Below are positions 6,021 through 63,809 of a stretch of 64,000 bases of DNA, piece after piece; the stretch's first letter is position 1, and every line of letters begins with the position of its first letter. Source of the stretch: Neckera pumila (lineage: Eukaryota; Streptophyta; Bryopsida; Hypnales; Neckeraceae); NCBI GenBank assembly GCA_963969595.1, contig OZ018418.1, positions 1,369,001-1,433,000 on the forward strand. The letters run 5' to 3'. The notes below the pieces were generated by a model. It was not told the DNA's origin, searched no databases, and worked only from the letters and a program-made list of their open reading frames with translations. The translations under genes were made by a program, and so were the position numbers.

Positions 6021-6047
6021 GATCTATGGATGTATCCATGCTAGTAG

Positions 6048-36206: not shown

Positions 36207-36430
36207 GCTTTAATATCCAAAGTTGCGACGGGGCAAGTACGGGTCTATGGCAGGTGCGGGTGAGACCATTGAAGCGACCTTGGGTTCTCGGCGAACGTGA
36301 GTACAGGACTTCTCGTCCCGATTGCGGGTATTGGATGAACGCAGGTATGGGTCCACAACGATAGCGGATACGGGTCCAATGTGACCTCGGGGACGGGTCC
36401 ATGTCGACCGCGGGTATGGATCCATGGCGA
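36207..36430 (-). promoter_or_regulatory. Promoter module of gene A: TATA-like box and GC-rich array
   Basis: In gene orientation: degenerate ACCCG-(C)-GGTC-type units (36225-36430; for example 'acccgcggtcgac', 'ccccgaggtcac'), then GGATATTAAAGC at 36207-36218. After it comes a leader containing 'ccacttctggctctgcg', 'catccacctagaagtgg' and 'ctgcgtactcgtgggcc', which recurs before genes B, D and E. The start codon is about 310 bp downstream. Confidence 0.6.
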
Positions 36431-36810
36431 CATTATGTGGAAAGCTTGTTCTTTTTTCCATTTTTTATGAAGTGCCAAAGCGGCAATATTGAATGTTTTA
36501 GTAGTGCTCCAAATTTCAACATTCATCCACATATTGGATAGAAAATATCATATTAGCACATATCACCATGGTTTTTTTGAAGTTTTTTAAAAGTGCCATA
36601 GTGGCAATATAAACTTTTGTAGTGGTGCTACAAATTTCAACATTCATCCATACCAGATACGAAATATACATATTATATGTCTGTAATTTGGTTTCCATCG
36701 AGAATCTGGCAATTTCATCCAGTATTTTTTTAAACTTTGAATTTTTTAGGGTGATTTCAACCAAGTTTTTTGCCAAGTTTTTTACAATTTTAATGCCAGA
36801 TTATTTTTTC
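36431..36810 (+). repeat. Dispersed repeat D, copy 2, with internal duplication
   Basis: Matches the reverse complement of 15240-15575. A ~120-bp part is doubled: 'gaagtgccaaagcggcaata' at 36469 and 'aaagtgccatagtggcaata' at 36589, each followed by 'aaatttcaacattcatcca'. Confidence 0.6.
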
Positions 36811-38926
36811 TAGTGCAACAAAGCATCAGAAAGCCAAAAAAAAGCGTTGCATATCACATATATACTAATTCAGTTTTCATTTCCATTTTGGCGATTTCAT
36901 CCAAGATTATGAATATATTTGAAATTTTTGGCAATTTTGCACCTTTTCAGTACCATTTTTCCCTACAGACGCGGTGCCAGGCCATAAAATTAAATCATAT
37001 TTTGCACCAGATCACCACAAAAAAAACATTGGTTGGAAGTTGTCCAATCACACAGATTTCTTGGACGGAAGGAGACATGTTCTGAATTTTTTATTTTTAT
37101 TTTTCAAATGGGTTAGATTTTGATCAATATTTGTCGCCAAAACTCAAATCACTACAGTCAAACCTAAATTACGAGAGATATACCACAAAGTGTTCAAATT
37201 TGCCTATTGTTGAAAAATTTACTATTTCGGAATAGGGTTGGTATTTTCATTATTAGATCTTATGCATTTTTTTACAAATCTATAGAAACCACAATTTTGA
37301 CCAATACAAGAAAAAAGCGTATGCGGAAGATAGAAATTGTACTTGGAGTTAATTTTTAAAATTTTATCATCAAAAGTCATTTTGAGGAGAAGCTAAAAAT
37401 AATTTGATAACTTTCACCATACAGTCATATAGATGCTTTCTACTTTTTGTGCTTCGTATTCTCTTTTTTGATGAAAACTTCAAATTAAGTCTTAGAACTT
37501 ATATTTTGTAATACATCTATATTTCTATCCTAACCCCTACGGCTCTTAGGAATTACAGACGTCTGGAAAAATTTAATTGTATCAAAAAATAACTCAAAAA
37601 TACATTTGATAAATAAGTAGGAGTAGGTACAAGAAAAATCAAAAATATTAACATCTTTTATATGGAGTTTAAAGCAGCACTAATCTTAGTGGCAAGATTG
37701 TTCTATCCCCAAAATTAACCTTGTGGACCCTTTTTTTAAATTGTAAAAATGGCGTTCAGAAAAGAATTTTACAACTCTGCAAGTTTTTTTCTTTAGGAAG
37801 ATGCTCTAAGTGACCAAAAAACAAGATTGTCCATAACTTGATAATATAAAATCCAAATGAAATGAATCAAAGCTTTTTAGAGAGCTAAAAAAAAAATCTA
37901 TGGGAAAAAAGAAAATTTAAAGACTAAAAAAAAGTTTAGTGTTTTATATAGGGTTCTTATTCTATTTCAAGCTCAACAACCTAAATCAATACGGCTTGCC
38001 CACAATATTTAGTGACTTTTTACCCTTGAAATTGACAGTAAGTATTCCATCTAAAACCTTTTTTTGGAGCTCAACCTAGCCTATTCCATTTTACCAATAT
38101 CAATTATCTACTGTTTCCTTGGTCATTAGATGTAATTGTCATATTGACAAATTGGGAACTTCCCAATGAATAATTCTAAGAAATCAATGATGGTACAAGT
38201 CATTTAAAATTATAAGCACTCATGGTACAAGTAACATTGGCGTTTCGGCCTTGAGGGCTCATGATTCAAACATCTTTTTTTTAATAGGTTTCACAAGGTC
38301 ATGATCTCTTAGAACAACAATTTCACCGTGGATACCAGCTACTACTGTGGCAATTCCCTCTAAAAGCTATTCACAGTTTAGAATTTCCTTCAATCCTAAA
38401 TTAACTTCTACAATTCTACCTAACAATTATTTAAGGGATGAAAATAACAATTTTTTTTTTTCCTTATTTCTAATCACAATTCTTGATGAATGAGAAATAA
38501 CAATTTTTTGAATTTTGGATGTCTTTCCTTTCAATTGTTCTTTCAAACTGGCACTCATAGGCCTGAAGGGATTAATGTTTTCTTCTGAAATAATTACATA
38601 AAATTAGTGATGCGGAAAACAACATCTACTGACTAACAAATAGATTTTGGAATTGGGTACACTCAATAGTTTGCAAGCAAACAATTCCAATCACATTGCA
38701 ATCTAATATGGTAGATAGTTTCCAAAACAAAATCAAGCTTCAAGATTCTATACATGAAATTGGGCAGACTGCAAACACAATATTAGATTTACTTATGACA
38801 TTGCACATGAAAAGAAGAACTTTTATAGATTTATATACCACATTACAAAAATAGAAGCAAATAACAGGGCCAACATTTTCATTCCTTCCATGTGCTACCC
38901 TCACCACAAGAACTCGTACACTCTTT
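36811..38926. other. No gene; partial MITE relic
   Basis: 37790-37910 carries the MITE interior words 'gatgctctaagtgaccaaaa', 'caagattgtccataact' and 'aaatgaatcaaagctttt'; similarity fades at about 37370 and 38040, so ends cannot be fixed. The rest (36811-37370, 38040-38926) is AT-rich with no ORF I can support. Confidence 0.4.
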
Positions 38927-39335
38927 CTATAGAGGCGAGTCGCGGAAAACTACTTCGGGAGGCTTCATGCACCATGGTGCAGCCATGAGGGAATTCATCA
39001 CCTCAATGCATGTCTGTCTCTTCTTTGGATCAAGGTTCACAAGTTCACCCAACTTAGAAGCAAAGAACCTAGATTCGTCGCCATTCCTGAATAGGTCCGA
39101 GTCAAAGTCAATCATACCTCCAATCCTCATCCATTCCGTCAACTTCCCAATAGAATATGAGTCCAAGTGCTACATATATTTCTGTGTTGATTGCATAGTC
39201 TCTATGCTTGTATCAGAATTTTGAGGCCCATATATATAAAACAACTCCGAAGCCACCCACCAATGTTGCTGCTATTGTCGTTCCCTTTCATCCACATCGG
39301 GGTAGCCGTAATGCAATGGGGCTTTTTCGTCAAAA
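38927..39335 (-). pseudogene. Kinase-like gene E paralogue, C-terminal fragment
   Basis: The minus strand reads LHYGYPDVDERERQ, then WWVASELFYIYGPQNSDTS, LDSYSIGKL, DPKKRQTCIEVMNSL and PWCMKPPEVVFRDSPL. This is colinear with the last 140 residues of gene E (WWVAPELFYQYGPQNS, FSIGKL, PWFMKPPEFIFRDS). The APE motif is altered to ASE, and two TAG stops interrupt it. The N-terminal two thirds are missing: similarity ends at about 39335, where the 41-bp minisatellite begins. Confidence 0.8.
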
Positions 39336-39345
39336 CGACTTTGAA

Positions 39346-39770
39346 TAATGGTGGATTGGTTTTAGTTTAAAGTAGTTTAATTTGTGTAATCGTAATTTAG
39401 TTTATAGTAGTTTAAAGTAGTTTAATTTGAAGTAGCTAAATTTAAGTAATGGTGCCATAAATTTAGTTTGAAGTAGCAAAATTTATTCATGGTGGCTTTC
39501 TTTTAGTTTGAAGTAGCAAAATTTAAATCATGGTGGTTTGATTTAATTTTGAAGTAGTCTAATTTAAATTCTGGTGGCTTGATTTTTATTTGAAGTATCC
39601 AAATTCAACCACGGTGGCTTGGCTCTGATTTGAAGTAGGAAAATTAAATAATGGTGGCTTCATTTTAGTTTGAAGTAGCAAAATCAAATCATGGTGGCTT
39701 GATTCACATTTTAAGTAGAAAAATTAGATCTTTGGGACTTGATTTCAACTCGAAATAGCAAAATCTAAAA
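39346..39770. repeat. 41-bp minisatellite, array 3
   Basis: Units 'tggtggctt(g/t)(a/c)ttttag' plus 'tttgaagtagcaaaatttaa' are of the same family as arrays 1 and 2. As in those, a GC-rich ACCCG-GGTCGCC array follows some 250 bp downstream, here in front of a gene. 39771-40027 between them shows nothing. Confidence 0.8.
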
Positions 39771-40027
39771 GGAAGGATTGCTAATCCCACTCTCTTTCTT
39801 ATTTATTTTAAATCTACAAAATCCACGGGGAGAAATGGTACATGACCAATTCCATTAAGAGTAGTGCAAGTGGGTTAAAGAAAATGGGTAGGGATTTTTT
39901 ACAGAAGTTGTTAAAGGAAATTGAATGAAGAAATTTAAATGTTTGATTTTTCTTCAAGGTTGACCAAATTTGAAGAAAGTCATAAATGGAGTGACCTCAC
40001 AAATTTGAAATTGATCTAAAAAAATTA

Positions 40028-40378
40028 GACCCGAGGTTGCTCTACCCGCAGTCGACCAATGCGGGGTCGCAGCACACCCAAGGTCACCAGTCCGCTAACC
40101 AGTTTCATTCAAACAATCTTTACCCGCAATCGCCTTCTGCCTACCCGCGTTCGCTTTTTGGATGCCCGAGGTCACTTTCTATGTACCCAAGGTCACCAGC
40201 ACTGGACCCGCATTCGCCCACGGATGGCCGAGGTCGCTTTTTGTGTACCCGAGGTCGCCAACATTGGACCCACGTGCGCCCACGGTACCGACGGTCGCCT
40301 TCTGTCTGCGGTTGCCTAGATTTTGATCCGTACGTGCCCTTACCCGTACCCGCCTCCGAGCGACTTTGGCTATATAAT
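40028..40378 (+). promoter_or_regulatory. Promoter module of gene B: GC-rich array and TATA box
   Basis: About a dozen units ('acccgaggttgc', 'acccgcgttcgc', 'gcccgaggtcac', 'acccgaggtcgcc', 'accgacggtcgcc') end at about 40362, then the clear TATA box GGCTATATAATC (40370-40378). The leader 'ccactcttggctctgtgc', 'catccaccttaaagtgg', 'ctgcgtgcttgtgggc' is shared with genes A, D and E. Confidence 0.65.
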
Positions 40379-40707
40379 CTGGACCAGTAGTCGAGGTCTC
40401 CACTCTTGGCTCTGTGCATTGCTTGATCATCCACCTTAAAGTGGCTATCTGCGTGCTTGTGGGCTTGGGGTTGAGTTGCGAGGAGGATATATTGTCCCTT
40501 TCCACCTCATTTTTTGAGCTTCTAGTCCCTTTCCACCTCAATCGTAAGCCTTAATTTTGACAATTTGTTATGTGAACTTTTGCCTAATATTTGTAAATGT
40601 GAAGTACAACGGATTTAGGACTTGCACATTTCTTTTGTCGTTTTGCGTGGATCCGAGTGTAGCCGTTTACATTAGGTTAATAGTTTGTAACGCACAAATG
40701 ATATCCA

Positions 40708-41898
40708 ATGGCCCTTCACCAAAAGAAGTCGAAGCCGAAGGGGAAGCGACAACAAAGGAATTGACACTCCCTTGTTGATCCACACGCTTGGGCCTATTGA
40801 GGTTGGGATAGAATTTGTGGAGATTGGACAACGCAGACTTGCAAGGCGTTCGTAGGGTGGTGCCACATTGACAAGCTATTCCCATATCATCAGCACAAAC
40901 ACCATCTCAGTATGAACGTGGCAAATCTTTATTACTACACTCATAACGCATTTGTGCAACGATGTATTGAAGTGTATCGAGCGTTGTACCAGGTACATTC
41001 AGTAATCAGGAACGAGGTCCTGTTGTTCATATGTGAAATGGTGTATGCGGAGGTCATCTTGGGACAAACAATGGATTGGTCAACCGTCAAGGGAGTAAAA
41101 CAAGCCATCATTTTAACCACCTAGGACATTCCTAAGGCGGGCCCTTCCAGAAATCTGCGTAATGGACTAGAAAAAAGGAAATATATAAAGCTCGGAGTCC
41201 CCAATGATCAGTTTGTGTGGTCAGACCACTCAAGTTCAGCAAACAAAAATGATTCCATTGAAGAACTTTCTTCCAACAGTGCGAGTCCAATGGACACAGC
41301 ACCAGCGGTTGGAGATTTATCAATAGTGGCAACAAAAGAAAGAAATCTGAATGAATGTTGTACATTAGCAATATACGTACTTCCTGTCGCATTCATCAAA
41401 TCGGTAGAGGTCTCTCATTTTGATGAAGTTGAAGTGCAAGATCTTGTAAATACACGTTCACAAGAAGAAGATGCGGATGACATTGAAATGTCTGAGTATG
41501 TGGGGCCTTCCGCCTTGCCCTCCATGGAAAACCTACCGTTAGCGAAGGAAGACCCTCGAGATGAAGATACAGAGCATATCAAAAATCCAAAAATGAAGAA
41601 GTTTTACAAAGCTCAACTTCTGAGGATTCGTGAAGAGTTGGTGGCAAGAAAAAATAGTGCCAGATGATGAGGGACAAGCTAACGGAAGATTTGGGTGTCT
41701 TGGTTGAGATGACCGTTCAAGTAGATCTTGAAGAAAGCCGAAGCCGTTTGTCATAGCAACATGAAGAGATAGCAAATCTAAAAGCCTCTTACAACCAATT
41801 CTCGGGAGTGGAGCCATCTAGTTCTAAGAAGAGGGACTATACACTACCCTGTACATGTAAATATAATAAAATGTACTATCCATTTTGTAAATTCTAAG
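40708..41898 (+). pseudogene. Gene B: WCHI-domain protein, short form
   Basis: ATG at 40708 (MALHQKKSKPKGKRQQRN) aligns with the start of gene F (MAPPKVKKTKKKG). The domain reads CKAFVGWCHIDKLFPYHQHK, MNVANLYYY, FVQRCIEVYRALYQ, MVYAEVILGQTMDWSTVK. The second Cys of the YC motif is Tyr here. Next come FVWSDHSSSANK, an acidic stretch, YKAQLLRIREELVARK, and after one frameshift near 41665 LEESRSRLS and NQFSGVEPSSSKK, matching gene F. It ends at TAA 41896-41898, about 130 residues shorter than F. Stops: two TGA before the domain, TAG at 41122-41124 (F has Lys), and one TAG where F has Gln. Function unknown. Confidence 0.75.
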
Positions 41899-44945: not shown

Positions 44946-45334
44946 CTGATTACATGCAGAAAAAAAGGCATTGGTGTTTTAGAGGTTCAGAATCTAGAGT
45001 CTTCTACCATCTCACAAATTCCACAAAAATCATTATATAGCCATATTTCGAATCATCCCTTTTTTTTTTCCTAACAAATGGAATTTGAATCATATTTGGG
45101 ATTTCATAGAGCTTATGAAGTGTAGATATCAGGGTTTTCTTGTCCGACAGATGGACAATTCGACGGACAAAATTTGTTCGACGTCTAGTAGAGGTAGTAG
45201 ACCCCCCGGTCTGTCTAGTAGAGTCAATTTTATCCTTTGACTTTTTAGGAAATTACTTTTAATTACCATAGCCTATTTGGCATCCACCTGGAGTCCGCGT
45301 GGCATATTTTAAAGGCACATGCGGGTATGACCTG
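44946..45334. other. No gene recognised
   Basis: Ordinary sequence before the gene C array. A Cys/Asp-rich purine stretch at 45150-45220 ('ggacaattcgacggacaaa') shows internal GACGGACAA repetition but no coding signal. Confidence 0.4.
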
Positions 45335-45645
45335 GAGGGGCGACCATGGGTAATGGGCGACCGTGTCTAGGGCGACCGTGGGTGGGCGACTGTGGATCTG
45401 GGGCGACCACAGGTGCGAGAAGGGTCCCTTCAAAACCCGCGGTCGCCTCTCTTGAACTTGCGGTTGCCTCAGTTCTACCCGCAGTCGCCCTGCACCGACC
45501 CGCAGTTGCCCCTCCAAGGACCCAAGGTCGCCCCACTTGACCCGCATGCACTCTACTCGGAGCCGCGGTCGCCCCACTTGGACCCGCATGCGCCTCCAAA
45601 CCTGAGGTCGCCCAACCCGTGGTGGCCCTATACAACTAGTCGCCC
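45335..45645 (+). promoter_or_regulatory. GC-rich array upstream of gene C, two opposed arms
   Basis: The left arm (45335-45418) carries units as GGGCGACCGTGGGT. The right arm (45435-45645) carries the reverse, ACCCGCGGTCGCC, so the array is an inverted repeat. The arm nearest the gene has the same polarity as at other genes. A weak TATA-like 'ccctatacaac' lies at 45625-45640. The start codon is about 110 bp on. Confidence 0.6.
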
Positions 45646-45752
45646 CTTTCTTGTTCAACACTTTTTTTCATTTTGGCTTGGTGTCTTGTATCCATTCATG
45701 GCTACATGCATGAGTCCTATTTGTTGAAACTTTAATTTTTTCTACTTTCATC

Positions 45753-48207
45753 ATGTTTCTTGGTATGGTCTCGAGGTCTTCATTTCAACAATCATTCACG
45801 GGCATCGAAGACAACAACAGAATGTCACTTCCTATTTCTGCTGCTGCACGCACTGTAGGTGTAATCAGGAAGGCAACTAGACACAAGTTTCGGCCGCGCA
45901 AGGGCAACATTCACCGAAAGCGATGGCACGTACTGAATAGCGAGAACCACCTCGCTTTCAGAGGTTGGGAAGACAAGCCTGAGCCCTGGACTATGCAGAT
46001 GTGCGAAGACTATATTGAATGGTGTCATATTGACAAATTCTTTCCGGCTTGGCGACATCATTATAATTGTCACACCAACAAGGCCAATTTGAAGTACTGT
46101 GAAAATGAGGATTTCAAACAAAGGTGTCTTGAATTGTGGCAAGCCCTCTATCGGACCCTGACTGTTGAAAGAAATGAGGTGTCTCTTTTCCTTGCGAGAG
46201 GCGCATACGTTGAGGTGGCGCTAAAAAAGGAGGTTGATTGGACAACAGTTAAAGAAGGCAAATACGTACAATAGTCAGAAAGTGGTTTAATACCAAGAGG
46301 TCTTTTGGCTTTTCCAGAAGGAGGGTTGGAACCTATTCGAAGTGCATAGAGAGATGTCCAGGTTGCAGAAGTAGACACTGAGGAATCTGAAGAAGATAAT
46401 GATTTTGATGGTACTCGAATTATAAAGGTTGCACGAGTTACTCCTGTAATTGTTGTCCCTTCAGAAGGTCAGACTGTGATGGATGATGGAGCTGGACCAT
46501 CAGGAGGACATAGAGCTAAACAACCAACAAGAGTGCGACGATCTACCATACAAATTGGTTCTAGATTGGCATCGACAACAGTTCCTAACGATGTTTTTGC
46601 CACCACGAGATGCTAGCACAGTCTTTGACTTCGGATTGGATGATGACACAACCATCGAAGTAGTTGGTGGCGCTCTAGATCCTCAATTTCAAGTGGCCAC
46701 AGGGGTGAACACTATGACTTTGGCACAAGCTTTGGTTTTACTGAAGACCAAAGATACCATGATTGCCTCACTGCAATGTAATGTGAAGAAATTGCAAGAT
46801 GAAGGCAAACAACAGAAAACTATCATTTCTTGGCAATCTACGGAACTGAAAAGCCTCAGACAAAAAGAGCACAACGCTTTTACTTTTTTGGATATGGACG
46901 ATATCTTGATTAACCATGATTCAATGCAATTAGAGAAGGTGATAAGGGACCTTACAAATTATGTCCATCACCCTTCTCCTCCTGCCAAACGTGCAAAGTA
47001 TGGAGCAAAGTTTCCAAATGCACATCTTGGTCCTACTGACATCATAGGAGATAGGTCCAATTCCTTGTGTGACCCCCAGGAGACCCAAGATTCCTTTTCT
47101 TTCCCGACGCTTTCAAGCTTTGTAGCCTTAGAAAAGGCATTGGAACTTCAAGCAAAAAACTCGACACTTCAAGGGCGGTTGTCAGAGTTGGAAGCTACAT
47201 ACTACCATTGGCAGGTTGCTTGCATTCTTTCCATGGATAGATCACAACAAGTTGCTCTGGAGTTGGAAAAAGTTTCCAAAAACTTCATTGCAAAGGCCCC
47301 AAAACGAGAGAACGGACTCACCTTGTGGCCTTTGTTAGAAGACATGTATCCTGATGATATGCCCATGGTTGGTGATTCCGATGTTATAGATTGGACCCGC
47401 AGTGGTTGGAACCATAAAAACCAAAAGTCCTACCACTTCGAAGTGAAGCAGCAAACGTTATTGTAGCCAAAGCCTGTGCCATTTGTCTTGGACTACACAA
47501 AATGCCCTATTTGTCTAGAGCAATTTGGGCCCGGAAGAGGATGGGCACTTGGATCTTGCGCCCATATATACCATCCTCAATGTCTCATCACGCAATGTCT
47601 GATTAGACGGCGTTGTGTGATTTGTTCAGCACCATTCCATAATCGTCTATATACCATGTTCAATTTGATGACTTACATGCCACCTTCTTGGGAACACAGT
47701 GGTGACACAATGGCTGAGGCGAAATTTTGAGGCAGAGATTTGCTTTGGAGTTGGCGACAAGCGGAACATGATCTGGAAAAAGGAATTGCTAGTTCGCAAT
47801 TAAATTGAGAAACTGACCCAGCTGAAATCACTAGAGTTGCACCGAGGCTCATGGGAAGCGGCTCACAAAATGAAGGCAGGAGGGCATTTTTCTACCAATG
47901 CCTTGGTGGATATTTTGATAACAACTCAAAAACCTTCAAGTGGGGTCCTCATCCACAAGGTTATCGTTGGGATTTGGACGGAAAAAGAATGGCCAACCGC
48001 GGAAGTGCGTCCATAGAAGAATGGAATTCTATGCAATACCTCAACTCTACATACGGGCCTTATTATCAAAGTCAAGCGCTCGACTATCTACTCGAAGAAC
48101 ACTCCCCACAAACAAGGAGGACCCTCCAAGCTCTAAAAGACTCCAACATGTTGGATTCTATTTTGAATGCAAACAAACCCGCTTCGCGAACTTGTGGCAA
48201 GCGTTGA
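45753..48207 (+). pseudogene. Gene C: WCHI-domain, coiled-coil, RING-H2 protein
   Basis: ATG 45753 or 45822. WCHI domain: LAFRGWEDKPEPWTMQ, DYIEWCHIDKFFPAWRHH, TNKANLKYC, FKQRCLELWQALYR, VALKKEVDWTTVKEG. A stop (TAG, 46272-46274) and a second TAG follow. The frame shifts once near 46460 and then stays open from 46483 to 48207 except for TAG 47464-47466 and two TGA (47728-47730 and about 47803). Order: coiled coil; RING-H2 finger (CPICLEQFGPGRGWALG, SCAHIYHPQC, RRCVICSAPF; C-x2-C, C-x-H-x2-H-x2-C, C-x2-C); then a 120-residue tail (FFYQCLGGYFDNNSKTFKWG). RING-H2 domains are typically E3 ubiquitin ligases, so the family may link to ubiquitination, but this copy is broken. Confidence 0.8.
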
Positions 48208-51779: not shown

Positions 51780-53258
51780 TCATCTGATGATGAAGTCACT
51801 CATCCTAGGCTCAGGCTGCGTTTCTTCTTCATCGTAATCATCTTCTTTCTCAAAGGTATGGAAAGCCCACTTCTTCCACCCTGTATAGTACTCCCACTCA
51901 GCAGCCAATTTACGCTCCTCATCTTTCATACTTGCCAATTGTTTTTCATGGAACTTCACCAGCTCCCGAAGCGTTTGTAATTCTCCATTCTTCTCTCCAT
52001 ATGTAGGGTCTGAAGCCAAAAGGTCCGTCTATGAGGCATGTTGCACAGCAATATCGAGATATTCTTTTTCTTTTTCTTTTATTTCCAGATTCATGGCTCG
52101 CCTTTTCTGCTCTACCACCTGACATCTACGTTGAAGGGTTTCAAGTTTTGACTCCCATACCATATGCTCATCCATTACGTAGGCCTTTCTGCTTGTATAT
52201 TTCTTCAAATACAAATCACGGTTGGTCTTGAAGGCATCAAAATCTTTATCATTCTCTTCAATGGCCTTAGTTATAGACTTCAACTTCAACTTCAAATCAT
52301 CCACAAAGCCATGATTGGCCTCACCTTCCTTCAAACTCTTCAATTCTTCTTTCTTGGCTTTCAAAGTCAACTTCGCGCTTTGTACTTTTGCAAGAAAGAT
52401 GTCTTCTTCATCCTCGGAATCACTTCTACCACCACTTTGCTCTTCCTCTTCAATTATCATAGGGTCCTCAACACCTTTTCCCTTCTGATTAGCTCTCCCC
52501 AAGAATGCCTTCCCCTCTTCCTCTTCAATTATTATAGGGTCCTCAATCCTTTTCCCCTTTTGATCTGTTCTTTCCAAGAATGCCTTCCCCGCTTCCTCCA
52601 TAGAAATATCTTCATCTTCACTCACAAAAGAATACCCGTCATATTCATGAGTATGCTCATCATCGCTTGAAGTAGCCGACCACATTACCTGTTCATTGGG
52701 AATAATTGACTTCCCAAGCTTCATGGGTCGCAGAAAAGTTTGCCAATTGTTGGATAATTCTATCTCAAATAATTTGGCTTTCTCCGGACGGATACCTACA
52801 AGAAGCTCCATTAGAGTTGTCCAGTCCACTTCCTTCTTCAATATCAGTTCTGTATACACCATTTGGGCTAGAAAGAAACTGAAATCATTGTTGCGATACG
52901 TTTTGTTCTCCAAGTACAAAGTAAACCATACCTCACAGCATCTGCGCTTGAAGGCTATATTCTTGCAGTATGCAAGACTTGCCTTGTTGGTATTCAGATG
53001 TTTCTGATGACGATACCATGGAAACAACTTGGAGATGTGGCACCAATCCACATATTTTTTAACCGTTGCATAACTCCAAGGTTCAGGTTCGGTTCTCCAA
53101 CCCTTGAATGCCTTGATCTTGGGATTAGTCAAGATTGCCACACGCTTTTTGTGCTTCTTCCCGGCTTGTGGTCGATTCTTGTCGCGAATCTCCTTTCTCT
53201 GCTTCGCAGTAAGGGTTTCAAGGCTGCGAAGGAGCAATGGTGGTGGCTCGTTGTCCAT
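51780..53258 (-). CDS. Gene D: WCHI-domain coiled-coil protein (one in-frame TAG)
   Basis: Best preserved paralogue of A: 493 codons from ATG at 53258 (MDNEPPPLLLRSLETL) with only TAG after residue 409 (about 52029, probably a Gln codon). Residues 48-118 form the signature domain (KAFKGWRTEPEPWSY, KKYVDWCHISKLFPWYRHQ, NKASLAYC, FKRRCCEVW). Residues 130-146 read AQMVYTELILKKEVDW; 190-210 VMWSATSSDDEHTHEYDGYS. Residues 224-248 and 249-273 are a tandem 25-residue acidic repeat beginning GKAFL. From 285 to 405 it is coiled coil, and the tail has LRELVKFHEKQ. Basic N-terminus (KKHKKR) could be a nuclear signal. Function unknown. It may be functional in another allele or by read-through. The promoter array lies 350 bp upstream. 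Confidence 0.75.
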
Positions 53259-53608
53259 GGTTTAGGACCTAGTGCTAGGGTGCTGAAAATTAGACTACCG
53301 ATACTAATATACCCTGTGTCTATGTCGATTACAAGAAGGAGCCGCCCTTACTATACCCAAGTCAAACTACAAATAAATTGTACTTCACATTTACAAAAAT
53401 GCAATCTTTCACATTCACAATGGCAATCAAGTTTGGAAATGTGTCGGGAAGTGAGTGTCCAAGTAAGACTGTAGAGAAAATTGAGGTGCAAAAGGATATA
53501 ATATCCCCTTACAAACTCAAGCCCAACTCATGTCCATGCAATCAACCACTAGGTGGTTGACAAACAATGTGCAGAGGAGGAAGTGGTAACTTACAGTCCA
53601 GGCGACTT

Positions 53609-53875
53609 CCTTTAATACCCGAAGTCGCTCTAGGGCACGTGCAGGTCACAAAATCGGGGCGACCGCAGGTCTGGGGGCGACTGGGCGTTTTGGGGCGACC
53701 TCGGGTATTGGTGCGAGCGCGAATTTGGGGCGACCATGGGTGTTGGGGCGACCTCGGGTGTTGGGGCGACCTCGGGTGTTGGGGCGACCTCGGGTGTTGG
53801 AGCGACCTCGGGTGTTGTGGGCTGGGGCTATTCAAACAAAACGGTTCTCGAGTTCCAGGGGCGACCGCGGGTCCT
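53609..53875 (-). promoter_or_regulatory. Promoter module of gene D: TATA-like box and 18-bp array
   Basis: Plus-strand units GGGGCGACCTCGGGTGTT (18 bp) occur about four times nearly without change at 53745-53820, with looser units on both sides. In gene orientation they read ACCCGAGGTCGCCCC. GGGTATTAAAGG on minus (53609-53620) follows on the gene side. The leader 'ccacttcctcctctgcac', 'aaccacctagtggttg' matches genes A, B and E. Confidence 0.7.
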
Positions 53876-54984: not shown

Positions 54985-55049
54985 TGCACCCTTTAAATTT
55001 AAAAAAAAATGGGGAGTGCATGATTCAATGGCCCTTTGTTCTTTTTATA

Positions 55050-55651: not shown

Positions 55652-55670
55652 ACCTTAGAACCGTCGGTCC

Positions 55671-55712
55671 AGGGTAGCATGCGTCTACAGCGACCGTGGG
55701 TTACAGGCCTAC
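55671..55712. repeat. Isolated fragment of the GC-rich array
   Basis: 'gcgaccgtgggtt' and 'ctaccgtgttt' form two to three degenerate units of the promoter array family, with no TATA box or gene of the family on either side. Confidence 0.4.
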
Positions 55713-55829
55713 CGTGTTTCACTTCACATGCTAAAGACTACTTCTAATTAGACTAAAAACACATATAGTATTTGTAGAATTTATTGGGATGTTTTGAGGT
55801 TGTGCAATTGTGCAAGAGCTTTGTGAATA

Positions 55830-56640
55830 TATAATTTTTATTTCAATCGGTGCCCCAAAGCAAAAGTTGTAGTACAGCAAGAAAAATCAAAGTTTGGCGA
55901 GCAACAAAAGGAAAATCACATAAAGTCGAAATAAATTAAAAAACAAAAATTCTTGAAAAACAATATTTTTGTCTACATGTGAAGCTTTGATTCATTCTAT
56001 TTGGACTAGTTCTGAGAAAGTTATAGACAATCATATTTTCTTGTGAAATCTAAGCATCTTCTTGAAAAAATAATTTATAGAACTCGTTTTTTAATGCAAT
56101 TGAATAATTTTTTTCAAAATAATTGTAAGATAGGATTTAGTTTGCATGTTACAACAATCTAACCATTGGGATTATTGACTTATTGTGTTTGGATTCCTTC
56201 TTGAAGCTATTTACAATGTATTGTTCCCTTCAATCTTGAAAGTACTGTTATTTAAAAAAAATTTAATGAGAAAAAATAAGTGTTTCTTCCTAATATTTTT
56301 TTCCTAGATTCTCAACTTAACTACTCAACATAAAATACTAGGAACACATCATCTTTAATGCAAAAAATTTAAGTTCAGAAGATTCAAAGCCAAATATTCT
56401 AGTTGAAAAAGGTGCCAAAAAACTTTTTTTTTACACTTCCAATGCAAATATCTTGCAATGTATGCGGTGAAAGTTTTTGAAATTTCTTCTACACATTCTT
56501 GTACTAGTGTAGTATAAGATCCTACGGTTAGATATGCAACAAGGAATAATTTCTAAATTTTTTTTTGCTTTGCAATAGAAATGGCAATTTCCATTGTCTT
56601 TTCATGGAAGAAATGCCTTGGTCCTTTATTGGTAAAAAAT
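55830..56640 (-). mobile_element. piggyBac-like MITE, old reverse copy (56 kb)
   Basis: Reverse orientation: 'caatcggtgccccaaagcaa', 'agatcctacggttagatatg' and the end GGTCCTTTATTGG-TAAA at about 56620-56637. The left end is not clear. Confidence 0.5.
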
Positions 56641-57029
56641 TTAATCCACATTTTCAAAATTGAACTTAGTTTAAAGATTCCACTACTCACAGTGATGCCA
56701 AAAGTTTTTGGCAACCCTCAGAAGCACTCTCAAAAACTATAAAATTAGAATTATGAACAGTGAACTTTGGACATGTTATAATAGAAAAGGGGTTTTGCCC
56801 TCATATGTAATTTCACTTAAAACGGACTATATTTGCCAGAATTTTCAATGGAAAAAATAATTGGGGTGAGGTGCAAAGTCATGCACATTACTTTCTACTT
56901 TTGCAAAAATTGTACTTCGTAATAAAATATGTTTATATAATTACAAGGATATATCAAAAAACTTGGCACTCAACTATGCCAACATTTATAGTCCTACTAC
57001 TCTACTACAAGTTGTACCAACCTATGCTA

Positions 57030-58595
57030 CTACACAACAGAGTCGCGGAAAATAAATTCGGGGGGCTTCATGAACCATGGTTTGTCCATGAGCGAGTCCA
57101 CCACTTGGGAACATGGTGCTCTTTTATCCACTTGTGCATGAAAAAGCTCCCGTATCTTCATTGCAAAGTACCTTAAACCATCTTGATGGGGGAATAGGTC
57201 ATGATCTACTTCAACAATGTTCTGAATCTTCATTGCTTGGCACAATTTCCCAATAGAAAATGAGTTTGATTTGACCGTATATTGGTATTGAGGTCGAACC
57301 TTTTCAAGACTTGTTGCTGAATTTTGTGGCCCATATTGATAGAACAACTCTGGAGCCACCCACCATTTCCTTGACATCAACTCATGCCTTTCAGTCTCAA
57401 TTTGATAACCGTAAGGTGAAAGGGCTCCTTCCTTAATACGACTTGCAATTCCCCATTCACAAATCCCGATGTTGATAACCTCGTCTGAATATCCAGGATA
57501 GTGGATCAAAATATTCATGGGGGACAAGTCATTGTGTAGCACCCCTGAATTGTACACGAGACTCATCACATAAACTAGGGCCCATGCCAACTTGGCCCTG
57601 TGCCTTTGATACAAAGTAATTTCTTTCTTCTGGTCATCTCAAAGTTCCTTGACCAACTTAATTTCATGCCACTCTGCATGTGCCACCACCTTGTCATTGA
57701 GCCCAATTAATTTGCGCAAATGACCTCCATTCCACCACAACGTGTATGCCTCCATTGTATTAGCATGGATAGCCAAAAATTTGATGATGGCCAGGTGATT
57801 TAAAGAACATACTAAGGCCTCTGTAGACCGTTCCACCCTCGCAGCATCCAAGTTCTGGGCCTTGGACACTTTTCCAGCAAATTGTGCAGTCGGTAGGATG
57901 GTATTCATTCCTTCAAAACATACCTTGCGCACCTTTCCATACCCACCTTGATTATTATATCTAGTGAGGGAAACTACCTTCACTGTAGAGTAGATCCACA
58001 AGACACATGATCCACCATCTTGAGACAATGCAGCCTTCAAAGCGTCCGTTTGCCAACCATACCCTCTCGGTTCACCCTTTGAAAGTTTTTTTGCTATTAT
58101 TTGCCACCACTTCATCAGCTTGCGAAACTCCTTGGACTCATCACTTTCAACATATCCAGGCACTATAGGGTGCAATTTTCCCATCAATTTTTTGGTGTTG
58201 AATATACATGCTTGAATACAATTATCAATCCATTTCTGGAATTGATCAAAGTATGTCAAATTCACGTCACCATAATCGGTGGAGTCTCTGCACTTCTTTG
58301 TAATTAGGGCCTCCAAATCCCTCTTCAATGCATCAATGCTTGGCCCTTTATTCCTCAAGTACTTGCTCTCCAAAGTTTGTACAGTTTGGCCCTCATACCA
58401 CTCCAAGCACACCTGATATGCAAAGTTTGAATAACGAGATGGAGGGTAGGTTGGATCTTTCTCGTGGGCTGTCTTTGGCTTTTTCAGCTTAGAAGAACTG
58501 GGCCCTCCTGTTGATGCACTTGTAGATATTTCCACCTGGAACCTTGCCGGTTCATCAAGATCTCTATCCCAAATGGACTTCCCTGGAGTAGCCAT
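57030..58595 (-). CDS. Gene E: protein-kinase-like gene (one in-frame TGA)
   Basis: ATG at 58595 (MATPGKSIWDRDLDEP; an upstream in-frame ATG is at 58634) opens 521 codons with a single TGA at 57639-57641, probably a former CGA. N-terminal 200 residues: no recognised domain. Kinase part: Gly loop NNQGGYGKVRKV, Lys in FAGKVSK, hinge YTLWWNGGHLRKL. After the stop: VLHNDLSPMNILIHYP (catalytic loop, HND for HRD; the Asp and Asn are present), INIGICEWGIA (place of DFG; Asp replaced, GICEWG), WWVAPELF (APE) and PWFMKPPE at the end. The altered DFG suggests a weak or pseudo-kinase. It shares the promoter module of the WCHI genes though unrelated to them. A truncated paralogue is at 38927. Confidence 0.75.
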
Positions 58596-58724
58596 GGTTG
58601 CCGCTATCGAGAACTTCAGAAGAAAAATTTGCAAAGGGTCCCCCCTACAACTTCACACCTTGGCCCACGAGCACGCATTCAGCCACTTCAAGTTAGATGA
58701 AAGCCGATGCGCAAGGCCAAGAGT

Positions 58725-59190
58725 GGCGACCTCAGATGGGGGGGGGGGAGGGGCCTTCTTAAGTACCCGCGGTCGCCCTGGGGTGCGTGCAGGTCAAGTC
58801 GCACTCCTAAGGGCGACCGCGGGTCCTATGGGGCGACTGTGGGTCTGATGGAGCGACGGCGGGTCCGATGGGGCAACCGCAGGTCCTAGGGCGACTGTAG
58901 GTCCAACAAGGCAACCGCGGGTAGGCATGGAATGGGCTTCTAAATTGAAACCATCCAGACCCGCGGTCGCCCCAGACCCGCTGTCGCCCCTTATGGCAAG
59001 AAGAATTGGACAAGCCTAAGTCTTGTTCACCCTTGTGGACCCGCGGTCGCCCCTTACCTACACTCGCCCCATACCCACGGTTGCCCTGAAGGCAAGAAGA
59101 AATGGATAGCCGTGAGCCTAGTTCTCGCCTTTCTGGACCCACGCTCGCCCCTGACCTACACTCGTCCCAGACCCGCGGTCGCCTCAAATG
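58725..59190 (-). promoter_or_regulatory. Promoter module of gene E: TATA-like box and GC-rich array with opposed arms
   Basis: GGGTACTTAAGAAGG (minus, 58754-58768) adjoins a unit ACCCGCGGTCGCC. 58810-58925 holds about seven units as GGGCGACCGCGGGTC, and 58960-59190 holds the reverse, GACCCGCGGTCGCCCC. In the outer arm units sit in a ~96-bp higher-order repeat with 'ggcaagaagaa'. The leader 'ccactcttggccttgcgc', 'cgtgctcgtgggccaagg' matches gene A and B. A G11-like run is at 58739-58750. Confidence 0.65.
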
Positions 59191-59781
59191 GCAAGGGAGA
59201 GAGTAAGGTAAGATCTCCACGAACTCAGATTGGATCTTACATTTATGGAATGTGATGTCCATTATATCTCTAATGTCAATGAAGACCAAAGTAGTATTCT
59301 GTCAACAATCTATTATTACTTTGTATAGTTAAAGGTCTTTGTAAAACCTATACTAAACCTATATAATGTATCCTATAATGTAATTCTAATGGAAAAAGTT
59401 TTGTTCTATATGTTTTGGGGGATGAATCCCCTATATATTTAAATTTTGGATTGTATTATATCTCTAGTTCTTAATGTATTTCTTGTCAATGTCACTTTCC
59501 CTATAATTCTATAAAGGTAAACTATTCAAATATTTCACCAATAAGCCAATATCAGAAAACATGTCAAACTCAATGGAAAAGTTTAATTTCCTCAAGAGTA
59601 ATACTTAAGAAGAAATGGAGTTGGGTTGGAAGATGTTTGATTTAAAACTCCAATGCATTAAAGGGGTGCCACCTTGAATGTATTTTCCTCCCTTTCTAAT
59701 ATATTTTCTCTTCACTTTCAAAAAATGAACTCCTCACTTATTGCATGAATGAATTGGTTTTCCAAATAGAATTACAATTTT
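59191..59781. other. No gene recognised
   Basis: AT-rich; no ORF, repeat or element end that I can support. Confidence 0.4.
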
Positions 59782-60450
59782 CCAGTAAATGCCCAAAGGC
59801 TATTTGAAGCCTCTATAACTTTGCCCTAATCTATGGAGAAAGCCAACATTTTGAGAAGTTTTATCATATTTTTTTGGATATCCGTACGTATGTAACCCTT
59901 CAAAGTTCAAATTAAACACGTAGAGATCACAAAAGAAGCCGAAACACGACAATATCACTTATAAGTTTGAAGTTTATAATGTTTGAGCTTGACAATGTTC
60001 AAACTATGAAAAAAAATTCAATTCACTTTTCACAAGTAAAACATCAAATTGAAGGTCGGGACTCCAAAAAAATATGAAGATTAAAGGCCTATCATGAAAA
60101 AACCCAATCAATTTGTGGCTTCTTAACCCGTAAATGCCCAAGGCCTATTTGGAGCCTCTAGGAATTTGTTCTAAATTTAACAAAAGGCCTACATTTTGAT
60201 AAACTGTATCAATCTATATTAAATTGTAGCCGTAGAAATTCAAAGTAGACATAATAGGGATTACATAGGAAGAAGAACACAAGAATATCACTTATAAGTT
60301 GAAATATTATAACATTTGACCATGACTGTATTGAAATTGTGAAAAAATTTCCATTCAATTTTCATAACTAAAACCTAAAAAAATGATGATCCAAAAAATA
60401 TGAGGTTTAAGTGCCTAACATGAATAACTGCAATAAATTTATGGCTAGTC
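59782..60450. repeat. Tandem duplication (~342 bp) of MITE family B left part
   Basis: 59782-60120 ('gtaaatgcccaaaggctatt', 'atatcacttataagttt') repeats at 60126-60450 ('gtaaatgcccaaggcctatt', 'atatcacttataagttg'). Confidence 0.65.
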
Positions 60451-61648
60451 AAAATCTACTCTACAAGGGTTTTAAATGAGTTTTGAATGTGATTTTTCCT
60501 CAACTCTTCTTGTATTTGAGGCTCATTTCTAAGAAATCTCAACACTATGAGAAGTCAAGATTGCAGTTTATACCCTTGCACAAAACCTTGTATAGAAAAA
60601 TGACTATAATTCATTATGAAGATTGGATTTTTGATACTAGAACTAGACTTCATGAATAACTTTCCAAAAATACAACCTACTAGAAATAGCAACTTGGTGA
60701 GTTTTTATTTAACCCCTAAAGTCCCAAGGCCATTTTTCTGTCAAAAATCATTCAAAACTGCTACTTTTGTTGCATTCATCTAAAAGATCAGAAAAAATAT
60801 TTTTTTTTTAGAAACTAATCGTAGGATCTTGTACTACACTTTTTACATATCATGTAGTAAAAATTTTGTGATGTTTGACCATACAGATTGAAAGATATCA
60901 ATATTCAAAGTGAAAGAAATTTTTTTTTTCAAGAAGATGCTCTAATTGCCCAAAAAACAAGACTGTCCATAACTTTCTCATTAAAATCCAAATGAAATGA
61001 ATCAAAGCTTCCCAAGTAGGCAAAAATATAATCTATAAGGAAAAAAAATTAAAAAAATTAAAATTATATTTTTTGCAAAATTTTTTTGCTGCCCCCTCTC
61101 CCCTGTTTTGAGCTTATTTGGACATAACTTTTGCTCCTGGGCACCGATTGAAATAAAAGTTACATTCCCCAAAAGCTAATAAGTTTTTCTATCTTATGGG
61201 AAAGTTTCAGAAAGTTTCAATAAAAATTGAGCTCAGAGGAACCTGCCCAAAATCCATTTTGTCTCCCGTAGGGACAATGGGACTTTAGGGGTTAACTTGA
61301 AAGTTTTGCAAACACTAGAATTAGGGGTTAAAATGTATTCTACAGTTTGTTTAAATGATCTCTAAATGTGATTTTTTCCTTCAAGTCCTAGTGTATTTGA
61401 GGGTCATTTACAAGAGCGCCCAGTAGTACGTGAAGTCAAGAATGCAATGGGTACCCTTGCACAAAAATGAAAATAGAAAAATCACTATCATTTATTTTCA
61501 AAATCGGACTTATGATATTGAAACTAGAGTTTTTGAATAATCTTTCCAAAAATATAAATATACTAAAAGTTTAAACTTGGTTACGTTTTATTTAACTTCA
61601 AAGTATGGCAAACACCAGATTTTGGTGCCTTGGGCAATTAAGGGCTGG
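60123..61648 (+). mobile_element. MITE family B, host of a nested MITE
   Basis: Left TTAA (60123-60126) CCCGTAAATGCCCAAGG. Right GGTGCCTTGGGCAATTAAGGG at 61624-61644, an imperfect inverted copy. A 250-bp part (60470-60710) is repeated at 61335-61600 on the other side of the nested element ('tgtatttgag(g)ctcattt', 'gaagtcaagattgca', 'tacccttgcaca'). Confidence 0.55.
60709..61295 (+). mobile_element. piggyBac-like MITE, copy 7, deleted form nested in family B
   Basis: TTAA (60709-60712) CCCCTAAAGTCCCAAGGCC and GGGACTTTAGGGG TTAA (61292-61295). Only 587 bp: the middle third of the 940-bp form is missing at about 60920, where 'gtgaaagaaatttttttt' jumps to 'caagaagatgctctaattgc'. Confidence 0.8.
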
Positions 61649-61734
61649 TTGTATAGTTTTATGGGGGAGCTTTGGAAAGTTTGAATTCAAATGGATTCCC
61701 TCCTATGTATATGGTGGGATTGGTCATATTTCCT

Positions 61735-61890
61735 GACTCGCGGTCGCCCCTCGCTGACCCGCGGTCGCCCCTCCCTGACCCGTAGTTGCCCCTCCCTGAC
61801 CCGCGATCGCCCCTCCCTGACCCGCAGTCGCTGAAGACCCGCGGTCGCCCTAACCCTTGCACTTGCCCAGGGCGATTTTGGGTATTAAAA
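61735..61890 (+). promoter_or_regulatory. Promoter module of gene F: GC-rich array and TATA-like box
   Basis: Six units, most 20-21 bp apart (GACCCGCGGTCGCCCCTCC) at 61735-61850, then 'gggtattaaaagc' (61880-61892). About 325 bp before the start codon of gene F. All units have the same polarity. Confidence 0.7.
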
Positions 61891-62216
61891 GCAGTTCTGC
61901 CTATTTTCTTTATCATTTCTAGCACTGCGCTCTGTCTTCCATCCCCCTTGCAGCGTCTGGATGCATGCTCGTGTGCTAGAAATTTGGGTCTTCACCCTTT
62001 ATACCACCGTCTAGGTACCCACACGCACTATAGACGTTTAGATTATTCTGTAAAATACGCTTGTTTGCATATTGTGAATGCACAAGTGTTGATGTAATTG
62101 CTGAAATTGCATTTAGGGCACGTGTGAACATAATAAAGAGTTGCAGATACACCTTTCGCATAGTGTAGCTCTTTGTTAGATTTCAACAAACTTCATTTCC
62201 ACCGTAATCTTCCGTG

Positions 62217-63809
62217 ATGGCCCCTCCAAAAGTGAAGAAGACAAAGAAGAAAGGGGATCGCCACGACAGAAATCGACGAGTCCTACTTGACCCTGGAAGC
62301 AAGGCATTTCACGGATGGTGCGTTGTGGAAGGAGATGTGACCTTGCCAATGTGCAAGACATTTGTGGGATGGTGCCACATCGACAAATTTTTTCCTTACT
62401 ATCGGCACAAGATTCATTTGAATCAAAACCTTGCAAATCTTCATTATTGCAAGGATGATGCATTTGTACAACGATGTATCGAAGTGCACCGATGGTTGTA
62501 CAGAACGGACAAAGTAATATGGAGTGAAGTTTCATTGGGCATTTGCCAAATGGTGTATGCAGAATTGGTGTTGGAATGAACAGTGGATTGGCGTAGCATG
62601 AAGGCATCAAAGAAGCTGGTCATACCAACTACCAAAGACATTCCAAGGGCACCCCTTTCAATTAATCCACGAGATGGATTGGGGCCTAAGAAGCACATTG
62701 TAGAAGGAGCGGCAGATGAAGACTACGTTTGGTCAAGCTCTGACGACTCGATGGAGGAAGATACTCTGGATCCCATTTCTCCAATGGAAGAAACAACATT
62801 GGACGAAAATACAGCATTGGTAGTATTTGAAGGAGAGAATGTAAGAGGGGACGTTCCCATGGACGTGGAACCTCTTGCAACGGTGGAACCAATGCATGTC
62901 TCTCATCTCTTAACTCATGAAGCGGAGCAACATGTGGAAGCACGCTTGAGAGAAATGGCTCAGGATGATTTCTATTTCAAGATTGAACCGGAGCCCACGC
63001 TGCTCTTAATATTAAAGTGGCATGAGGATGAAGTTGATGATTGGATTCTAGAGGTAGTTCCCCATGGAGAACCAAATGAATTGGTATACAATGAGCCTAG
63101 CAAGAAATCAATGAAGGAAAAGTACAAGGCGCAATTGAAGGATCTTCTTGCTCAAATAGAAGAAAAAAATATGGAGTGTCAGATTCTACTGGATAGGGCC
63201 ACAATAGATATTGAGACTGACGACGTGCACAATTTACAAGAACTAATAGGTGCTGGCCTCACTCATTTAGCTGTTCAACAACAAGAGATGGCCAGGTTGG
63301 AAGAGTTCTATCTAACATTCAATAAAGGGCAAGATGGAGGATCAAGTTCCAATCCAAAGCAAGTCAGAAAGAAAGAACTACACAAAATAATGAAAAAGTG
63401 TAGGACGGAAGAGATTCGGGGCAATGACGAAAGGCAAAGTTTGGAGGTAGCTCAATCTAGGTTGAATCACCTCCATTCCATGAAAGTTAAAGCCCCCCTT
63501 GTCAGGACTTTGGAGTTTGATGTGGCGTGTGTGGATGGGCAACAACAGATGTCTCCATTAGAATTTGCTGAATTGAAAGAAATGTGGGATTCTTTGAAGA
63601 TGTTGGAAGCGGAATATGAAAAGAGCATTAAATGGAAGAAGCAATACATTTCATTTTACAAAATGTTCAAGCCTTTTTTGATCAAGAACAATAGGATGGT
63701 TCCGAATTCTTTCAAACAGTGGCAAGTTGAGGAAGAGCAAGTCTTGAAGGAGATGGCCCGTGCAAGAGCAGGTCTTCAAGGAGAAGGCAGCAAAAGAGCA
63801 CATGAATGA
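62217..63809 (+). CDS. Gene F: WCHI-domain coiled-coil protein (one in-frame TGA)
   Basis: ATG at 62217 (MAPPKVKKTKKKGDRHDR) starts a 531-codon frame broken only by TGA at 62577-62579 (MVYAELVLE-stop-TVDW). The domain reads KAFHGWCVVEGD, CKTFVGWCHIDKFFPYYRHK, QNLANLHYC, FVQRCIEVHRWLYR. It lacks the PEPW motif of A, C and D. Next: YVWSSSDDSMEED acidic region, LILKWHEDEVDDW, a coiled coil (residues about 300-420; KEKYKAQLKDLLAQIEEKN), then a basic linker and a second helical region (LEFAELKEMWDSLKML-type, FKQWQVEEEQVLKEMARA). Basic N-terminus suggests nuclear entry. Closest to gene B. Function unknown; the single stop leaves open a functional allele elsewhere. Confidence 0.75.

What the first reader, a model, noticed from the sequence alone, without database searches (positions are those of the whole stretch)
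36207..62217. One promoter module in front of two unrelated gene families
Seen: every gene of the 34-64 kb cluster (A, B, C, D, F and the kinase-like E) has a GC-rich minisatellite just upstream. Five of six then have a TATA-like element of the GGGTAYTAAAAG kind, and A, B, D and E share a leader ('ccactcttggctctg', 'catccacct..aagtgg', 'tgcgtgctcgtgggc'). The array core ACCCGCGGTCGCC is constant, but the unit length and spacer differ: 18 bp at D, 20-21 bp at F, irregular at A and B, a 96-bp higher-order repeat at E. Constancy of the core despite different spacers suggests a bound site rather than chance tandem growth. That E is unrelated in protein to the others shows the module moves or is shared independently of the coding part. 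Inference: a co-regulated, possibly mobile or recombination-built multigene system.
Basis: partly seen in the sequence, partly recalled or inferred. Interest (0 to 1): 0.88.

Follow-up and report, generated by a model that had tools for sequence, protein, structure and literature searches.

The report
Giant multigene hAT jumping gene
The six 'co-regulated genes' are parts of two copies of a very large plant jumping gene (about 27,000 bases, five genes) whose short GC-rich repeat sits both near its two ends and in front of each gene it carries, which hints at one protein that controls both movement and cargo.

Summary
GC-rich arrays (core ACCCGCGGTCGCC) precede all six genes (46 hits, 0.09 expected). 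A, B, D, E and F share a TATA-like box and leader boxes at near-fixed spacing, weakest in D and F, although kinase E is unrelated in protein. What was missed: C, D, E, F and a hAT transposase gene G just right of the window form one 26.8-kb DNA transposon. Sister copies have paired TIRs and 8-bp target duplications (2 of 8 pairs perfect, 7 of 8 at 6/8 or better). A, a relic kinase and B are an older sister. The core also lies 191-378 bp inside element ends, outward in 23 of 24 listed cases. So the array is not only a promoter module; it looks like hAT subterminal repeats reused at cargo promoters. Kinase and transposase stay together even where the kinase is at most 37% identical (27 of 45 within 30 kb; 1.7 expected). 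The window copy is decayed, as are all eight young D genes checked. Binding and expression are inferred. Cargo-carrying hATs are known (fungal ToxhAT, 14 kb); in the rows my searches showed I found none with such arrays.

The parts
45130..45151 (+). Left terminal inverted repeat CAGGGTTTTCTTGTCCGACAGA of the young giant hAT element (right TIR, imperfect, lies outside the window at L069:7864-7885 = C11:1440864-1440885; element 26,756 bp)
   Evidence: right end placed by eye
45122..45129 (.). Left 8-bp flank GTAGATAT; the right flank is GTTTCTTT, so no target duplication survives at this copy
   Evidence: read
45339..45414 (-). Left subterminal array, units pointing outward
45435..45627 (+). Array units pointing to gene C
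45714..47729 (+). Gene C: D-family N-terminal domain, then a RING finger (47467-47729, zf-RING_11 1.9e-8); in this copy three open stretches in two frames
52029..53261 (-). Gene D (410 aa open in this copy; frame in sisters runs to about residue 494-499 but all eight young copies checked carry at least one stop before that); protein family without Pfam match, EPEPW...YVDWCHI..LFP..RH motif, acidic stretch, coiled-coil-like helices
53609..53620 (-). TATA-like GGGTATTAAAGG of D; leader follows towards 53500
53658..53872 (-). Array of D, 18-bp units, pointing to D
57030..58652 (-). Gene E: protein kinase (Pkinase 9.3e-9 in 57030-57638); in-frame TGA at 57639-57641 and EWG in this copy; a sister copy (L041) has DWG and no such stop
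58765..59183 (.). Array of E, bipartite: units facing E near the gene, units facing away beyond
61736..61849 (+). Array of F, 21-bp units, pointing to F
61880..61891 (+). TATA-like GGGTATTAAAAG of F
62217..63809 (+). Gene F: D-family paralogue, in-frame TGA at 62577-62579 in this copy
34674..35897 (-). Gene A: older-family copy of D (43% identity, 7 stops inside), part of a sister element
   Evidence: C11:1403674-1404897
36403..36415 (-). The one core unit in the weak array of A
38937..39262 (-). Relic of the kinase gene between A and B (aligns with 57040-57365)
   Evidence: score 89, shuffled maximum 40
40044..40299 (+). Array of B
40830..41860 (+). Gene B (approximate limits): D-family domain in one frame, then the ORF 41125-41667; taken as the older family's F by position; interrupted

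Best explanation
SHOWN: the 45-64 kb genes, with transposase gene G beyond the window, are one giant hAT-superfamily DNA transposon of about 26-30 kb. It has short TIRs (CAGGGTTTTCTTGTC...), 8-bp target duplications at sister copies, and five genes in fixed order: C (RING), D, E (kinase), F and G (transposase); C, D and F are paralogues. A-relic-B is an older sister. The ACCCGCGGTCGCC arrays occur at two kinds of place: 191-378 bp inside ends, facing outward, and upstream of the genes, mostly facing the gene. INFERRED: the arrays are binding sites for an element-encoded protein, most likely the N-terminus of transposase G, as in other hAT elements with subterminal repeats; a D-family protein is the alternative. 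Binding at the ends would serve excision; binding at every promoter would switch cargo and transposase on together, or keep them unmethylated. E probably got the D-type promoter by ancient duplication within the element, before the families split.
For: Transposase: DUF659 2.1e-29 and Dimer_Tnp_hAT 3.6e-5 in pieces of G. TIR pattern: 87 places with up to 3 mismatches, 4 for the reversed control. Target duplications at 8 TIR pairs: 8/8 at C4:8.32 and C11:12.04; 7/8 at three; 6/8 at two; none at C3:18.34; chance of 6/8 or better is 0.0042 per pair. All five gene matches lie inside the C4 (25,979 bp) and C1:20.98 pairs. Array upstream of 48 of 52 genes, after 0 of 52, also in families at 41-56% protein identity. 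Subterminal cores outward in 23 of 24, at 17 ends, plus 7 of 7 at four second-type ends. Leader boxes 1 and 3 upstream of 12 and 11 of 14 old D, 10 and 12 of 13 old E and 12 and 12 of 12 young E, never after these. dN/dS means 0.52 (D) and 0.61 (E) over 28 pairs each suggest past selection on the proteins. Kinase near transposase in 61 of 101 (random 6.7, max 16); at 37% kinase identity or less 27 of 45 (random 1.7, max 6). Published: the hAT transposase Kat1 has subterminal repeats whose polarity differs between the ends, and a BED finger important for DNA binding (PMC4763223, passages seen).
Against: No binding, expression or methylation data. Pfam found no BED finger in the 81-residue N-terminal piece of G; a CxxC...H...C pattern is seen by eye only. 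The window copy has no target duplication, one of 8 pairs has none, and its genes are broken; no copy with all five genes open was shown, and all eight young D copies checked carry stops. C and G have arrays but not the leader; young D has box 1 in 4 of 13 and box 3 in 0 of 13, and box 2 also turns up after the match in 12 to 50% of each group (2 of 13, 4 of 14, 2 of 12, 6 of 13). Array zones are less alike between copies (86-95%, many gaps) than leader and coding sequence (93-98%), while a non-coding block upstream of E's array is 96-99% alike; 136 of 307 departures from the core are CpG transitions. So the core is kept, the array as a whole is not. Pairwise dN/dS values are not independent and reach 1.30 in one D pair. 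Two of 100 listed cores remain near no element feature at all, and 8 more only at the far side of loci with one TIR.
Confidence: 0.8

Rival explanations
1. VANC-like anti-silencing: the arrays are targets of an element-encoded anti-silencing protein (a D-family member), which strips methylation from the element; the ends carry arrays only because silencing must be lifted there too.
For: In Arabidopsis VANDAL21 the VANC21 motif forms dense same-orientation repeats, often tandem, in non-coding regions, with gain and loss of repeats between copies, and VANC21 also sits in terminal non-coding regions (PMC5735166, passages seen). Here too: arrays in non-coding DNA, mostly one orientation, many gaps between copies, CpG-rich core with CpG decay, and three D-family paralogues of unknown function in the element.
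Against: VANDALs are Mutator-type (PMC13317346, passage), this is hAT. VANC targets vary considerably between related elements (PMC5735166), whereas this core is the same in families at 41-56% protein identity. No DNA-binding fold found for D (mean pLDDT 54 and 68, no PDB match at E <= 0.001), which is weak evidence at that confidence. The outward orientation at ends points rather to transposase sites.
Confidence: 0.3
2. Promoter-only reading of the first reader: the arrays are host transcription-factor sites recruited by a mobile promoter; the end copies are leftovers of lost genes.
For: Array plus TATA-like box plus leader at near-fixed spacing in five genes; arrays face the gene in 92 of 94 D-type and 40 of 43 old E-type units.
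Against: 24 of 100 listed exact cores lie within 600 bp of a TIR, 23 of them outward, in two TIR types; the array beside G's end has about 180 bp and no gene between it and the TIR; young E arrays have more units facing away (96) than towards E (35).
Confidence: 0.15
3. Selfish minisatellite growth: GC-rich tandem repeats expand by slippage without function and are spread with the element.
For: Unit length and number differ between genes and copies.
Against: Same 13-bp core with different spacers, recurring places and orientation in families at 41-56% identity; 0 of 52 stretches after the match.
Confidence: 0.05
4. An endogenous virus or virus-transposon hybrid rather than a transposon.
For: Size, several genes and a promoter module for each gene are virus-like.
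Against: No capsid or polymerase family among the element ORFs given to Pfam; a hAT transposase, TIRs and 8-bp target duplications are present.
Confidence: 0.03

Closest known systems
hAT superfamily (Ac/Ds, Tam3, Tol2, Hermes, Kat1)
   Same: DUF659 / hAT dimerisation transposase, CAGGG TIR, 8-bp target duplication, subterminal repeats with opposite polarity at the two ends (Kat1: PMC4763223, passages)
   Different: 26-30 kb with four further genes (kinase, RING protein, D and F); subterminal motif repeated at internal promoters. Typical hAT elements are a few kb (recalled).
ToxhAT, a 14-kb fungal hAT transposon that carried the ToxA gene between species
   Same: A hAT element enlarged by cargo (PMC9594970, one passage)
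   Different: Smaller, fungal; the passage mentions no arrays and no conserved multigene set; its structure was not compared here
VANDAL elements with VANC anti-silencing proteins (Arabidopsis)
   Same: Element-specific motif in same-orientation repeats in non-coding regions, repeat-number change between copies; extra genes beside the transposase
   Different: Mutator-type; motif diverges between families; no VANC relative identified here (Pfam only)
Giant eukaryotic transposons (Polinton/Maverick, Teratorn, Starships, large Helitrons)
   Same: Large mobile elements with several genes
   Different: Other transposition enzymes (recalled); the word hAT does not occur in the 2019 review of giant transposons (PMC6431247, term search)

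Membership tests
hAT superfamily | hAT transposase (DUF659, hAT C-terminal dimerisation) | tested here: met
   PF04937 2.1e-29, PF05699 3.6e-5, both over cut-off
hAT superfamily | 8-bp target site duplication | tested here: met
   2 of 8 pairs perfect, 3 at 7/8, 2 at 6/8, 1 none; window copy none
hAT superfamily | short TIR starting CAGGG (motif recalled) | tested here: met
   8 TIR pairs, most CAGGGTTTTCTTGT; some ends begin CAAGG, CAGAG or CAGGA
hAT superfamily | N-terminal BED zinc finger | tested here: inconclusive
   no Pfam family in L069:2763-3007; CxxC...H...C by eye
hAT superfamily | subterminal repeats | tested here: met
   24 of 100 listed cores within 600 bp of a TIR, 23 outward
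hAT superfamily | catalytic DDE residues, excision activity | not tested
   no alignment of catalytic residues made; activity needs experiments
VANDAL/VANC system | Mutator-type transposase | tested here: not met
   hAT transposase
VANDAL/VANC system | dense same-orientation motif repeats in non-coding regions | tested here: met
   (D and old E; young E is bipartite)
VANDAL/VANC system | element-encoded protein that binds the motif and lowers methylation | not testable with these tools
   needs DAP-seq/gel shift and methylation data
Endogenous virus / Polinton | capsid and polymerase genes | tested here: not met
   none among the element ORFs given to Pfam

The most novel reading that the evidence does not exclude
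A lineage of giant hAT transposons in a land plant carries a transposon-wide address code: one conserved 13-bp site, read by one element-encoded protein, marks the ends for excision and drives (or un-silences) every cargo promoter, so that movement and a set of kinase, RING and D-family helper proteins are switched on as one regulon. The kinase has stayed with the transposase since before the families fell below 37% kinase identity.
Probability: 0.4. Interest if true: 0.87.

Novelty: new variant of a known kind. Interest (0 to 1): 0.7.

Why it matters
hAT elements are usually thought of as small transposons with one gene (recalled), with cargo as an exception (ToxhAT). A 26-30 kb hAT with five genes, whose kinase and transposase have stayed together over deep divergence, would show that this superfamily can keep helper genes, as VANDALs do, and would give a clean test of whether a transposase's own binding site doubles as a promoter switch. 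It also warns annotators: the kinase and D-family 'gene families' in such a genome are transposon cargo. The lineage is concentrated on contig C11 (3.6% of the genome; 30-34% of the hits used).

Tried and rejected
Function of the D family: Pfam, PDB sequence search and two fold predictions gave nothing usable. Kinase profile against the PDB: nothing at 1e-10; Pfam places it. TATA word as a window-wide motif: no excess. Host-gene cluster: rejected, because gene order recurs inside TIR pairs. Gene-less elements as a natural test: at four loci, arrays 3.7-7.5 kb apart facing outward, without element genes, were fetched at both sides. One interior has no ORF above 101 aa, but only one TIR per locus was found and the pieces may not reach the other end, so I make no claim of complete non-autonomous elements. 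De novo 8-mers in old families: the leader word TCATCCAC comes up in both D and E and GCGGTCGC in E, but most top words are family background. Older sister element: no TIR found for it in the window.

Papers: ten searches used; several listings were cut (12 of 17, 15 of 117, 10 of 13, 10 of 204 shown). No row shown named a giant multigene hAT with shared arrays. Most subscription papers are not held, so absence from print is not established. The same check changed what I say of D.

Counts to read with care. All three match lists are capped by the tool. One search used the 100 of 219 cores that one search listed (C1 to part of C4), hand-typed gene and TIR lists, and distance without regard to direction. 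In some searches and 90 loci were left out by match start (8 of 60), strands and identities typed by hand.
Full report
WHAT THE WINDOW IS. The window is G000:C11:1369001-1433000 of a 339.5-Mb genome in 18 contigs. A LEAFY-type SAM domain is present and rings in none of the tool's 14 control genomes, so it is most likely a land plant or near relative; a moss with eleven chromosomes is my guess (recalled karyotypes), not shown. C11 (12.3 Mb, 3.6% of the genome) holds 30-34% of the element hits used; a sex chromosome is possible, not tested.

OBSERVATION. The arrays are far above chance (46 hits, 0.09 expected) and stand in front of all six genes, though A has a single recognisable unit. The leader is real: scores of 62-117 among A, B, D and E, except D-E (23), compare with shuffled maxima of at most 29; F scores 35-38 with A, D and E but only 23 with B. 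Boxes recur at near-fixed distances: TATA-like to box 1 32-34 bp (E 42), box 1 to box 2 27-28, box 1 to box 3 49-50 (D 46), F included; in D and F some boxes match poorly and only the position agrees. C and G have arrays but no such leader.

THE THING ITSELF. Protein D and kinase E recur genome-wide in the same order and orientation, with C and F copies around them. Twenty kb of contig to the right of the window hold gene G with DUF659 and hAT dimerisation domains and, beyond it, a last array and an imperfect inverted copy of the sequence at window 45130 (by eye). The TIR pattern CAGGGTTTTCTTGTCSGACARA occurs 87 times with up to 3 mismatches, 4 times read backwards. Eight pairs bracket gene sets. 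Their 8-bp flanks agree 8/8 (two), 7/8 (three), 6/8 (two) and not (one). The C4 copy is 25,979 bp and holds all five gene matches; C1:20.98 (30,228 bp) also holds five; C11:12.04 (30,263 bp) holds G, E, D and C matches; C3:43.6 (21,451 bp) lacks E and F in the capped lists. The window copy runs from 45130 to C11:1440885, 26,756 bp; its flanks do not match, so it has been rearranged or one end replaced. The 72 kb between the C2:46.8 TIRs is presumably due to later insertions (not checked).

TWO ELEMENTS IN THE WINDOW. A matches D at 43%, B carries the D-family domain in one frame, and between them lies a relic of the kinase. A-relic-B is therefore the D-E-F part of an older sister, without ends found. 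The young element's left end begins about 3 kb to the right of B.

PROTEINS. C, D, F and A share an N-terminal domain of about 100 residues with invariant W, C, H and R positions in 14 sequences; C ends in a RING finger. E is a kinase with Pkinase E 9.3e-9 in its C-terminal half; in 31 relatives HND, a lysine and one G-loop glycine are invariant and DWG is at least 90% conserved. D has 11 relatives, E 32 and G 24 in a 5.8-billion protein collection, mostly on short contigs; D relative P0003 and kinase relative P0015 both list a longest contig of 6,460 bp, possibly the same one. dN/dS means of 0.52 and 0.61 over 28 pairs each (range 0.27-1.30 and 0.43-0.94) point to past selection, diluted by decay. 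In the window copy C, E, F and G are shorter than stop-free frames elsewhere: C 512 aa (C2:46.9), E 473 aa (C4), F 538 aa (C1:20.99), G 1,112 aa (C3:86 kb). D is open for 410 residues here; the frame in sisters reaches about residue 494-499, but each of the eight young copies checked has at least one stop before that, the window copy included. No copy with all five genes open was shown.

DEEP ASSOCIATION. Of 101 kinase hits 61 lie within 30 kb of a transposase hit (random 6.7, maximum 16). At kinase identity of 37% or less it is 27 of 45 (random 1.7, maximum 6), at 30% or less 25 of 39 (random 1.6, maximum 7). So kinase and hAT transposase have travelled together longer than the D family is recognisable by this search.

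WHERE THE ARRAYS ARE. Upstream 1.5 kb: 13 of 13 young D, 10 of 14 old D, 12 of 12 young E, 13 of 13 old E; after the match 0 of 52. D-type arrays face the gene (92 of 94), old E arrays too (40 of 43); young E arrays are bipartite (35 towards, 96 away). At ends: 24 of the 100 listed exact cores lie 191-378 bp from a TIR, 23 pointing outward, at 17 ends, including ends with the other TIR type CAGGGTTGTCTTGTC; 7 more lie 273-410 bp inside four further second-type ends, all outward. In the window, the C-side array is split: outward units next to the TIR, inward units next to C. Arrays change length between copies and depart from the core by CpG transitions in 136 of 307 changes. Leader and coding parts are 93-98% alike in the young copies, array zones 86-95%; a non-coding block beyond E's array is 96-99% alike, so the leader is not unusual in this.

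MECHANISM. Shown: structure, past mobility, placement and polarity of the arrays. Inferred: binding by an element-encoded protein. Subterminal repeats are reported for several hAT elements and their polarity differs between the ends at Kat1 (PMC4763223, passages); methylation of such sites inhibits Ac transposase binding (PMC3878927, passages). Reuse of the same site in front of every gene would make transposase and cargo one regulon. The VANC system is the closest working parallel for arrays in non-coding DNA (PMC5735166, passages; PMC10398659, abstract and outline). The core's constancy across families and its outward polarity at ends make me prefer the transposase as reader; the D family stays a serious alternative.

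NOVELTY. By transposase, TIR and target duplication this is a hAT element; by size, gene number and array placement it looks like a new variant. Cargo on a hAT is not new as such: ToxhAT of fungi is 14 kb (PMC9594970, passage). In the rows shown by ten searches I found none like this one; a 2019 review of giant transposons does not use the word hAT and neither does a 2026 review of gene capture in plants (term searches).

Noticed in passing
window 20402-20820 and 39421-39769: The same 41-bp tandem repeat at two places 19 kb apart (score 323, shuffled maximum 35), each near core matches (19756-20054; 40044-40299).
   Followed up: partly
window 22567-24003 (-) and L069:8388-8792 (-): Two ORFs of one unnamed family (score 275), the second just outside the young element's right end; no Pfam family above cut-off.
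   Followed up: partly
window 24930-30020 (-): Retroelement-like ORFs (integrase-like, zinc-knuckle and gag-like reading by eye), broken.
   Followed up: no
window 5568-7663 (-): Reverse-transcriptase-like ORFs of a non-LTR type (by eye).
   Followed up: no
window 55689-55701 (-): A lone core match (2 mismatches) between D and E, far from both arrays.
   Followed up: no
contig C11: 3.6% of the genome but 30-34% of the D, E and G hits used; possible sex chromosome, not tested.
   Followed up: partly
C11:11697655-11711477 and C11:11816550-11830372: Two copies of an old-family element in opposite orientation about 106-132 kb apart with identical hit scores: looks like a recent inverted duplication.
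   Followed up: no
C2:17579842, 17656610, 17804383, 17888066: Four ends with the second TIR type, each with a core exactly 223 bp inside, within 310 kb.
   Followed up: partly
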